From contig NZ_WQNH01000002.1 of NCBI RefSeq assembly GCF_009812055.1, positions 1-64,000 of the forward strand: DNA of 64,000 bases, in the 5' to 3' direction. Below the pieces are notes generated by a model. The model was not told the origin of the DNA. It ran no database searches and was given only the letters and a program-made list of their open reading frames with translations. Position 1 is the stretch's first letter, and every line of letters begins with the position of its first letter. The DNA comes from Chelativorans xinjiangensis (GTDB taxonomy: Bacteria; Pseudomonadota; Alphaproteobacteria; Rhizobiales; Rhizobiaceae). Shown piece by piece: positions 1 through 1,344 of the stretch. A program made the position numbers and the translations under genes.

Positions 1-39
1 TGCTTGTCTTATGACTTTTTCCGCCGAACGGGCGAATAA

Positions 40-205
40 GGGACCGCTGGGAGAGGGTAGCCGCCCTCCCTCAGCGGCGAGGGTCGGATCGTTGAAATGC
101 GGACCGTTCGACGGGTCGAGCTAGAGTGAGATCGCCCTCGTCTTTCCCTTGAGGCCTGAACGGATACCCGCAGTTCGGCTGCGGACGACAAGCACAGGAC
201 AAGCG
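40..205 (+). ncRNA. Candidate IS110 bridge RNA in transposase leader
   Basis: In IS110-group elements the non-coding region upstream of the transposase encodes a bridge RNA that pairs with target and donor DNA (established for IS621). Here the leader has clear structure. A 14-bp stem with one mismatch and one wobble pairs 44-57 with 64-77 around a 6-nt loop. CGAGGG at 78-83 can pair with CCCTCG at 135-140, enclosing a 51-nt loop. GCAG/CTGC at 170-182 closes a TTCGG loop. The arrangement of a 5' stem-loop followed by a large internal loop resembles bridge RNA architecture. The exact ends and guide loops are inferred, not shown. Confidence 0.4.
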
Positions 206-209
206 AAAG

Positions 210-1157
210 ATGACCAATGATACCATCGGCGTCGACATCTCGAAAGACCATCTCGACGCCCACCGCGTGAGCGACGGCGCAAGCCGGCGTTTTGCCAATG
301 ACAGCGCCGGACATCAGGCCTTTGTGGATTGGCAGGGCGGCCTCGAAGGCGTTCATGGCGTGCGCGCCGTCTACGAGCCGACGGGCCCCTATCACAGGGC
401 CTTCGAGCGCAGGTTGGCGGCGGCGGGCTTCGCGCTGGTCAAGGTCAACCCGCGCCAGGCAAGACGCTTCGCCGAAGCCACGGGCACGCTCGCCAAGACC
501 GACCGGCTGGACGCCGCCATGCTGGCCCGCATGGGCGCCCTGCTTGACCTTGAGGCACGGCCGGTGCGCAGTCCGGTCCTCAGCGATCTCAAGGACCTGC
601 ACATGGCCCGCCAGGCGCTGGTGAAGAACCGCACAGCGGCGAAGAACAGGGCAAAGAACCTGACCCTTCCCATCCTCAAACGCCACAACGCCGAGCAGCT
701 CAGGCAGATCGAGCGCCAGATGGCGGCGATCGACAAGGAGATCATGGCGCTCATCCGGGCCGACCCGGACCTCGCCCGCCGCTTCGCCATCCTCGTCTCG
801 ATCCCGGGCATCTCGGCAATCACCGCCTTCGCCCTTCTCATCGACATGCCCGAACTCGGCACGCTCTCAAATGGTCAGGCAGCTTCACTCGCCGGTCTTG
901 CTCCCATCGCACGACAGTCCGGGACATGGACCGGCCGCGCCTTCATCCGCGGCGGCCGGGCCAATGTCCGCCAGGCGCTCTACATGCCCGCCCTCGTCGC
1001 CATGCGCTTCAATCCGGACCTCAAGGCAAAATACGACCAGCTCAAAGCGGCCGGCAAAGCCCAAAAAGTCGCCATCACAGCAATCATGCGAAAGCTCGTC
1101 CTGCTCGCAAACGCCCTGCTCAGAGACAGCCGAAAATGGACGCCTGCCCTTCCTTGA
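210..1157 (+). CDS. IS110 family transposase (recombinase)
   Basis: A 315-residue protein with the two-domain IS110 layout. The N-terminal RuvC-like DEDD domain shows D9 (GVDISKD), E56 (YEPTGPY) and D98/D101 (KTDRLD). The C-terminal Transposase_20 domain (about 190-280) holds the PGIS motif and APIARQSGTWTGR, whose serine (S237) aligns with the catalytic serine of IS621. These four acidic positions and the serine keep nearly the same spacing as in IS621, so the enzyme looks intact. It would catalyse RNA-guided excision and insertion through a circular intermediate. The last 23 codons lie in an 88-bp unit that is duplicated directly downstream. A long antisense frame across the gene has no recognisable product. 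Confidence 0.93.
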   Translation: MTNDTIGVDISKDHLDAHRVSDGASRRFANDSAGHQAFVDWQGGLEGVHGVRAVYEPTGPYHRAFERRLAAAGFALVKVNPRQARRFAEATGTLAKTDRLDAAMLARMGALLDLEARPVRSPVLSDLKDLHMARQALVKNRTAAKNRAKNLTLPILKRHNAEQLRQIERQMAAIDKEIMALIRADPDLARRFAILVSIPGISAITAFALLIDMPELGTLSNGQAASLAGLAPIARQSGTWTGRAFIRGGRANVRQALYMPALVAMRFNPDLKAKYDQLKAAGKAQKVAITAIMRKLVLLANALLRDSRKWTPALP

Positions 1158-1264
1158 CCAACACGGATACTCTAGACGAAAGCTCGTCCTGCTCGCAAAC
1201 GCCCTGCTCAGAGACAGCCGAAAATGGACGCCTGCCCTTCCTTGACCAACACGGATACTCTAGA
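1089..1264 (+). repeat. 88-bp perfect tandem duplication at IS right end
   Basis: Bases 1089-1176 are repeated without change at 1177-1264. Each unit contains the last 69 bases of the transposase gene, its stop codon and 19 further bases ending in TCTAGA. The second copy is therefore an untranslated remnant of the transposase 3' end. Each copy carries TTGACC (1154-1159 and 1242-1247), which resembles a -35 box close to the element end. Confidence 0.95.
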
Positions 1265-1344
1265 AAGTCAGCCCACAAGCTACTGATCTAGTGGGGCGAT
1301 TTGTCCCGACAGATGGGTACCATCTGTCAGGATCGCACCACTAG
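1265..1344. repeat. Partial REP-like element, right half
   Basis: This segment matches the right two thirds of the composite repeat at 26487-26607, including the palindrome GACAGATGG-GTAC-CATCTGTC around 1308-1330 and the terminal CACTAG. The left hairpin of the element is missing, which fits interruption by the IS110 element. The final CTAG overlaps the stop codon of rne. Confidence 0.8.

What the first reader, a model, noticed from the sequence alone, without database searches (positions are those of the whole stretch)
40..205. Structured leader of the IS110 element fits a bridge RNA
Seen in sequence: a 14-bp hairpin (44-57/64-77), a closing stem CGAGGG/CCCTCG around a 51-nt loop (78-140), and a small GCAG/CTGC hairpin (170-182), all within the 209 bases before the transposase. 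Known: IS110-group recombinases use a bridge RNA made from exactly this region, with a 5' stem-loop followed by target- and donor-binding loops. The transposase keeps D9/E56/D98/D101 and S237, almost the same spacing as IS621. Inference: this is an intact, programmable RNA-guided recombinase of a subfamily whose guide loops have not been read.
Basis: partly seen in the sequence, partly recalled or inferred. Interest (0 to 1): 0.62.

Follow-up and report, generated by a model that had tools for sequence, protein, structure and literature searches.

The report
Guide RNA of an IS110 element

Summary
The finding holds. Window 3-1171 is an IS110-group element, assembled as the consensus of at least seven copies (seven right junctions). 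Its leader encodes a predicted bridge RNA with all four guides readable. Target guides GAAATGC (94-100) and GCTAGAG (120-126) match the flanks of the copies...TGCT|CTAG (one of three left flanks only 4/7). Donor guides CGGATAC (161-167) and GACAAG (187-192) match the element's own ends.

In 40 aligned leaders, 17 of 24 pairs show compensatory changes. A model from 24 relatives of at most about 67% protein identity finds window 40-165 at E=2.7e-24. Guides follow insertion sites across homologues: 0 of 20,000 re-pairings did as well on either side. The 'handshake' base covaries with the target. The joined ends would form a promoter, TTGACC-17-TATGAC, with that spacing in 47 of 49 rows.

Expression, recombination and reprogrammability were not tested. 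Anatomy matches IS621. The one difference noted in the guide scheme: the base facing the second core T in the left target guide is not conserved (T in 11 of 31). It is a new member of a known kind. The 88-bp duplication at 1089-1264 is probably an assembly seam.

The parts
1..2 (+). Last two bases of the left target (TG) flanking the element; the contig starts here, so the rest of this copy's left flank is missing
   Evidence: Left flanks of three other copies end in TG before the core CT
3..1171 (+). IS110-group element as assembled, from left core CT (3-4) to right core CT (1170-1171, repeated at 1258-1259); collapsed consensus of at least 7 copies
   Evidence: Boundaries from 3 left and 7 right junctions in the same genome and from homologues
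3..12 (+). Left end (core CT + right-donor sequence): CTTGTCTTAT
   Evidence: Near-invariant (90% or more) in homologue leaders (C3-T12)
10..15 (+). Predicted -10 element TATGAC of the promoter formed when right and left ends join
   Evidence: 17-nt spacing to TTGACC in the modelled junction; same spacing in 47 of 49 rows; no shuffled control was run
22..203 (+). Predicted bridge RNA (start inferred from the -10 position; 3' end inferred)
   Evidence: Covariance model hit 40-165 at E 2.7e-24; exact ends are inference
44..77 (+). 5' stem-loop of the bridge RNA
   Evidence: Helix 1: 5 of 5 counted pairs with double-sided changes
78..140 (+). Target-binding loop with closing stem CGAGGG/CCCTCG and inner GATC/GATC stem
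   Evidence: Helices 2 and 3; inner stem switches to GACC/GGTC in 3 homologues
94..100 (+). Left target guide GAAATGC
   Evidence: 6/7, 6/7 and 4/7 to the three left flanks; covaries with flanks in homologues
120..126 (+). Right target guide GCTAGAG, complementary to core CT + CTAGC
   Evidence: Right flanks of 7 copies read CTCTAG (5 CTCTAGC, 2 CTCTAGA); covaries in homologues
127..128 (+). Handshake guide of the target loop (TG), can pair with donor A and T just left of the core
   Evidence: T127 nearly invariant; donor ...GGATA|CT; role by analogy with IS621
155..203 (+). Donor-binding loop with inner hairpin CCGCAG/CTGCGG (168-184)
   Evidence: Helices 5-6; donor guides below. Outer limits of the loop are inference
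161..167 (+). Left donor guide CGGATAC, identical to the right end of the element up to the first core base
   Evidence: Right end ...ACACGGATACT
187..192 (+). Right donor guide GACAAG, reverse complement of the left end CTTGTC
   Evidence: the second GACAAG at 198-203 is not conserved in distant homologues
193..193 (+). Handshake guide of the donor loop (C), can pair with target G just left of the core
   Evidence: 41 of 45 homologue rows Watson-Crick, with compensatory changes
210..1157 (+). DEDD recombinase, 315 aa (D9, E56, D98, D101, S237)
   Evidence: PF01548 and PF02371; IS621 5e-33, ISCro4 1.9e-33; residues
1154..1159 (+). Predicted -35 element TTGACC of the junction promoter, overlapping the recombinase stop codon
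1165..1171 (+). Right end: left-donor GGATA + core CT (first copy of the 88-bp repeat)
1253..1259 (+). Right end: GGATA + core CT (second copy), followed by the real right flank CTAG
1089..1264 (+). Perfect 2 x 88-bp duplication of the 3' end, probably an assembly seam
   Evidence: six other contigs end within 0-3 bases of the same point of the unit

Best explanation
Window 3-1171 is an IS110-group insertion sequence. Its left non-coding end encodes an IS621-type bridge RNA. The element is inferred to leave as a circle; joining the right and left ends would build a promoter (TTGACC-17-TATGAC) that transcribes the leader. The RNA folds into a 5' stem-loop, a target-binding loop and a donor-binding loop. 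The target loop pairs with ...GAAATG-CT-CTAGC...-like sites in the genome. The donor loop pairs with the element's joined ends, ...CGGATA-CT-TGTC.... The recombinase (DEDD plus serine) then exchanges strands at the CT core, putting the element into sites of the type TG-CT-CTAG, many of which lie at the ends of dispersed repeats. Shown here by computation: the fold, the guides, the element ends, the sites and their covariation. Inferred from IS621: circle formation, transcription, RNA binding and catalysis.
For: Own copies: left flanks ...TG|CT in 3 of 3, right flanks CT|CTAG in 7 of 7; guide words at 94, 120, 161 and 187. The three words CGGATAC, CTAGAG and GACAAG, chosen after reading the sequence, occur together in 3 of 100,000 Markov-random leaders. 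Structure covariation: 17 of 24 pairs, 0 of 500 shuffles. Covariance model built without relatives above about 67% identity: window hit 103 bits; the only other window hit up to E 1 has E 0.3. Left guide-flank match 5.58 of 7 against 3.98 for permuted pairs, 0 of 20,000 (36 distinct pairs). Right guide-flank 4.05 of 5 against 1.68, 0 of 20,000 (19 distinct pairs). Handshake pairing 38 of 42 against 32.8 expected, p 0.0004. Junction promoter spacing in 47 of 49 rows. Plasmid loci read later: CTAG opposite right guide GCTAGAG in 8 of 8; left guide 6/7 or 7/7 in 6 of 8, counted by eye. Solved relatives IS621 and ISCro4.
Against: No RNA or recombination data. No Rfam match; whether Rfam holds a bridge-RNA family was not checked. 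The single-sequence fold is only mildly significant. The window's left target guide matches one of three own left flanks at only 4/7. Of the 36 distinct left pairs, 7 match at only 4 of 7, which is about the permuted level. Homologues L030 and L031 have right flanks that do not fit their right guide (0/5 for L030; L031 flank). Two S. medicae plasmid loci, and L072 (5/7), fit less well on the left. Four of 45 rows lack the handshake pair. The guide base facing the second core T is T in only 11 of 31 scored homologues, unlike IS621. The permutations remove repeated guides and targets but do not otherwise correct for relatedness.
Confidence: 0.95

Rival explanations
1. The leader is a cis-acting structure (attenuator, or a shield against read-through transcription) that controls recombinase translation and does not guide recombination.
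For: A strong 5' hairpin and further stems sit directly upstream of the start codon. A small RNA that modulates recombinase expression has been proposed for ISPpu9 (cited in PMC11208160 section 5).
Against: Regulation does not explain loop sequences that change with the insertion-site flanks between homologues or that match the element's ends. A second, regulatory role is not excluded.
Confidence: 0.03
2. The stems and guide matches are chance in a G+C-rich leader.
For: Fold z-score only -2.2; guide words are short, 6-7 nt.
Against: 0 of 500 shuffles for covariation; 0 of 20,000 permutations for guide-flank matches on each side; three words together in 3 of 100,000 random leaders.
Confidence: 0.01
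3. The bridge RNA is real, but this element is a dead or assembly-damaged copy.
For: The contig starts at the element's left end and the 3' end is duplicated (88 bp), so the copy shown is an assembly product.
Against: The open reading frame and catalytic residues are intact. Seven right junctions with different flanks share 99-100% identical ends, pointing to recent movement of the family in this genome.
Confidence: 0.1

Closest known systems
IS621 (E. coli; bridge RNA, Durrant et al. 2024, Hiraizumi et al. 2024)
   Same: Recombinase domains and DEDD+S residues; bridge RNA in the left end; 5' stem-loop then target then donor loop; 5' guides pair with the bottom strand and 3' guides with the top strand; CT core in target and donor; handshake guides; junction promoter; insertion in dispersed repeats (IS621: REP).
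   Different: Different target and donor sequences. The left target guide does not pair with the second core T here, and that base is not conserved in relatives. The right target guide can pair over 7 nt (4 in the IS621 structure).
ISCro4 transposase (PDB 9t56)
   Same: Best sequence match among solved structures, E 1.9e-33 over residues 6-306.
   Different: Its bridge RNA was not compared here.
ISEc21 / seekRNA of IS110 and IS1111 elements (Siddiquee et al. 2024)
   Same: Guide RNA from the non-coding region upstream of tnp in IS110-type elements, with short matches to both target strands; natural reprogramming is reported there too (passages).
   Different: That paper reports 70-100 nt RNAs; the RNA here is only predicted, at about 180 nt.
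ISRm19 (IS110 family, S. meliloti)
   Same: IS110-family element inserted in REP repeats, 4 of 4 copies (PMC1525189 passages).
   Different: Sequence relation to this element was not tested.

Membership tests
IS110 family, IS110 group | DEDD RuvC-like domain PF01548 plus PF02371 domain | tested here: met
   Both above curated cut-offs
IS110 family, IS110 group | Catalytic D, E, D, D and serine | tested here: met
   D9, E56, D98, D101, S237, aligned with ISCro4
IS110 family, IS110 group | Long non-coding region upstream of tnp, short right end | tested here: met
   205 nt from left core to start codon, 12 nt between stop codon and right core
IS110 family, IS110 group | Absence of the long subterminal inverted repeats of IS1111 | not tested
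   No dedicated repeat search of the ends was run
[quoted passage not shown]
   model of the 5' stem-loop and target loop region
Bridge RNA (IS621 type) | First loop complementary to both strands of the target, covarying with it | tested here: met
Bridge RNA (IS621 type) | Second loop complementary to the element's ends (donor) | tested here: met
   CGGATAC and GACAAG; ends differ and guides follow in L116 (both donor guides) and C13 (left donor guide), read by eye
Bridge RNA (IS621 type) | Right target and right donor guides pair with both core bases | tested here: met
   GCTAGAG and GACAAG both end in AG, the complement of CT
Bridge RNA (IS621 type) | Left target guide pairs with both core bases (an IS621 detail, not taken here as defining) | tested here: not met
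   Window G101 faces the core T; T in 11 of 31 homologues. The left donor guide also stops at the first core base (C168 faces T), as in the IS621 structure
Bridge RNA (IS621 type) | Promoter reconstituted at the RE-LE junction | tested here: met
   Sequence only: TTGACC-17-TATGAC, spacing in 47 of 49 rows
Bridge RNA (IS621 type) | RNA is expressed, bound by the recombinase and required for recombination | not testable with these tools
   Needs RNA sequencing and recombination assays

The most novel reading that the evidence does not exclude
This mainly alphaproteobacterial clade is a variant in which the left target guide stops one base short of the IS621 scheme, so that the second core T is read only by the right guides and the protein. 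In it, one recombinase type has been retargeted in nature dozens of times, handshake base included, giving a ready natural training set for guide rules outside IS621.
Probability: 0.3. Interest if true: 0.5.

Novelty: new member of a known kind. Interest (0 to 1): 0.36.

Why it matters
It gives a fully annotated predicted bridge RNA (four guides, both handshake positions, junction promoter) for an IS110 element whose closest relatives here are from Rhizobiales. It comes with 36 distinct natural left guide-flank pairs and 19 right ones. Anyone wanting a bridge recombinase that works in Rhizobiales could start from these coordinates. It also adds natural support for the handshake-pairing idea.

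Tried and rejected
Single-sequence folding was tried as proof of structure and set aside as weak (z -2.2). Rfam found nothing. The sigma-70 scan of the linear window 1-1300 found no promoter, which fits a promoter formed only at the joined ends. The RNAalifold pairing of columns 4-8 with 216-220 is the left end pairing with the right donor guide; I left it out of the counted structure, together with 172-173/179-180, which never vary. The second GACAAG (198-203) was considered as the right donor guide and rejected because it is not kept in distant homologues.

Script errors found and mended: one search used wrong left ends for L060 and L082 (redone). Searches took a wrong donor-guide match for L085 (redone: 41 instead of 40 of 45, and 38 instead of 37 of 42). 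One search's count of the base facing the core T (11 of 34) was redone with a stricter register (11 of 31). One search also used wrong left ends for L060 and L082; these are its two exceptions.

Rows dropped: of 51 aligned leaders, the left test used 44 (out: window, L116, L129, L032, L037, L071, L035) and 36 after removing repeated guides or targets. The right test used 37 (out: window, L116, L129, L071, and ten with no right end found or too little flank), then 19. One search has 49 rows including near-identical copies. The handshake test used 45 rows, or 42 after collapsing near-identical ones; its four misfits are L030, L042, L044 and L072. The plasmid search listed 15 of 2845 records; I fetched 8 (H1, H2, H4, H6, H7, H8, H11, H15). 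Of 64 TGCTCTAG sites only the first 30 were read.

Papers: of PMC11208160 I read the abstract and sections 5, 6, 7, 8 and 12; of PMC11208158 the abstract and sections 7, 8 and 11; of PMC1525189 and PMC11187229 only found passages; of all others only search listings. Paper searches listed no paper whose title or abstract start describes this clade's bridge RNA, but only an open library is searched and no supplements were read.

Full report
What is there. The window begins at the first base of a contig (C31), two bases before the left core of an IS110-group element. A 315-aa open reading frame (210-1157) matches PF01548 and PF02371 and the solved IS621 and ISCro4 transposases. D9, E56, D98, D101 and S237 are in place. 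Only one full copy was found in the genome, most likely because the assembler collapsed the repeats: three contig ends carry its left end and six others its right end.

Element ends. In the three left junctions the element is preceded by AAAATG, GAATTG and ATCATG, each followed by CTTGTCTTAT. In the seven right junctions, window included, GGATACT is followed by CTAG: five CTAGC and two CTAGA. The core is therefore CT, the target is ...TG-CT-CTAG..., and the joined ends are ...CGGATA-CT-TGTC....

Empty sites. TGCTCTAG occurs 64 times in the genome, against 717 for the reversed control word, so the motif is rare rather than enriched. Of the first 30 read, 18 lie at the end of two related dispersed repeats: 12 have GGAAT or GGAAC before TGCTCTAG and 6 have GGGATCA. 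One of the three observed left flanks is of the first type (...TTTCCCTGGAATTGCT). A second (C85) shares only the last bases GGGATCA and otherwise lies in a different palindromic repeat.

Guides. The leader holds GAAATGC (94-100), GCTAGAG (120-126), CGGATAC (161-167) and GACAAG (187-192 and 198-203). This is the layout described for IS621: the 5' guide of each loop pairs with the bottom strand and the 3' guide with the top strand (PMC11208160 sections 6-7). The three words CGGATAC, CTAGAG and GACAAG occur together in 3 of 100,000 Markov-random leaders; they were chosen after reading the sequence.

Structure. Forty leaders (48-100% protein identity; by record title nearly all Alphaproteobacteria) were aligned. 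RNAalifold gives the outer part of the 5' stem, the target-loop stems and the donor hairpin, with 18 of 31 pairs changed on both sides in some sequence. Counting 24 of these pairs gives 96.4% of cells paired and 17 pairs with double changes, with no shuffle (0 of 500) as good. Sliding the partners by 1-3 columns drops pairing to 32-59%. A covariance model of the 5' stem-loop and target-loop region, built from 24 relatives of at most about 67% identity, finds window 40-165 at 103 bits, E 2.7e-24. The only other window hit up to E 1 has E 0.3. The model also reaches the more distant element L116 (E 9e-9) and the genome's own paralogue on C13 (E 3e-4).

Guides follow targets. Among 44 homologues with both parts readable, the six left-flank bases plus the first core base match the homologue's own left guide at 5.59 of 7, against 4.03 when pairs are shuffled. 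With 36 distinct pairs it is 5.58 against 3.98; 7 of these 36 match at only 4 of 7. None of 20,000 shuffles reached either observed value. On the right side, in fixed register, 37 homologues give 4.22 of 5 against 2.20, and 19 distinct pairs give 4.05 against 1.68; again 0 of 20,000. Examples are right flank ACCGC with guide GCGGT (L049), CACCC with GGGTG (L059) and TCTGA with TCAGA (L056). The shuffles do not correct for relatedness beyond removing repeated guides and targets.

Plasmid loci. Eight loci were read afterwards. Eight of eight have the right guide GCTAGAG and CTAG on the right. Six of eight match the left guide at 6/7 or 7/7, counted by eye. Two of these are 7/7 with the window's own guide GAAATGC (the same site in two strains). 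Two S. medicae loci match poorly on the left.

Handshake. In IS621 the bases after each right guide pair with the opposite DNA after strand exchange (PMC11208158 section 11). Here the base after GACAAG is C193 and the target base before the core is G. In 45 homologue rows this pair is G-C 36 times, T-A 4 times (three of these rows are near-identical elements) and C-G once, with 4 misfits. On 42 rows, 38 pair against 32.8 expected (p 0.0004), and 3 compensated non-G pairs occur against 0.21 expected (p 0.0002). In the target loop, T127 is nearly invariant and faces the conserved donor A before the core.

Promoter. Joining right and left ends in a script gives TTGACC-17 nt-TATGAC for the window, and the same 17-nt spacing in 47 of 49 rows (no shuffled control). 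The -35 overlaps the stop codon. IS621 likewise rebuilds a promoter on circularisation (PMC11208160 section 5). The linear window shows no such promoter.

Differences from IS621. Durrant et al. state that every guide pairing includes the core. In the IS621 structure the left target guide covers both core bases and the left donor guide only the first. Here both left guides stop at the first core base: window G101 and C168 face the core T. Among 31 homologues scored in register, the base facing the target core T is T in 11. The structure paper says that the second core T is read by the protein backbone and that non-CT cores can work. That fits the TT left cores seen in L055, L057 and L115.

Distant relatives, read by eye. 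L116 has ends CAGATG|CT and CT|TGCATG with guides ACAGATG and CATGCAAG. The C13 paralogue has right end ACAGTCG|CT with guide ACAGTCGCT. Donor guides therefore also change with the ends.

Caveats. No expression or activity was tested. The element shown is a consensus and its left flank is missing. The 88-bp duplication at its 3' end sits where six other contigs end, to within 0-3 bases. The C13 paralogue has similar 78- and 89-bp duplications, so these are most likely assembly seams.

Verdict. This is a well-supported bridge RNA of an IS110-group element, a new member of a known kind.

Noticed in passing
window 1089-1264: Perfect tandem 2 x 88 bp of the element's 3' end, at the point of the unit where contigs C66, C79, C49, C27, C114 and C81 end (within 0-3 bases); probably an assembly seam.
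   Followed up: partly
L028 (own genome C13), 681-835 and 1820-1998: A second IS110 element (40% protein identity) with its own readable left donor guide, bracketed by 78- and 89-bp perfect duplications like the one in the window.
   Followed up: partly
window 1264-1344: Palindromic dispersed repeat with at least 30 other copies in the genome (only 40 of 209 candidates were scored), directly right of the insertion and beside an 873-aa frame resembling RNase E (name recalled, not searched).
   Followed up: no
L149, L152, L157: Another multi-copy element in the same genome ends at the same TGCTCTAG motif (...ATTAAACAGGACG|TGCTCTAG); CTAG may be shared by unrelated elements.
   Followed up: no
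L030 and L031, right flanks: Right flanks after the core begin TGT, as the element's own left end does, and do not fit their right target guide; perhaps a rearranged or donor-donor junction.
   Followed up: no
L039 1040-1165, minus strand: A second bridge-RNA copy on the opposite strand next to a partial recombinase copy.
   Followed up: no
L055, L057, L115 left junctions: Natural TT instead of CT at the left core while the right core is CT, suggesting that the first core base on the left comes from the target.
   Followed up: no
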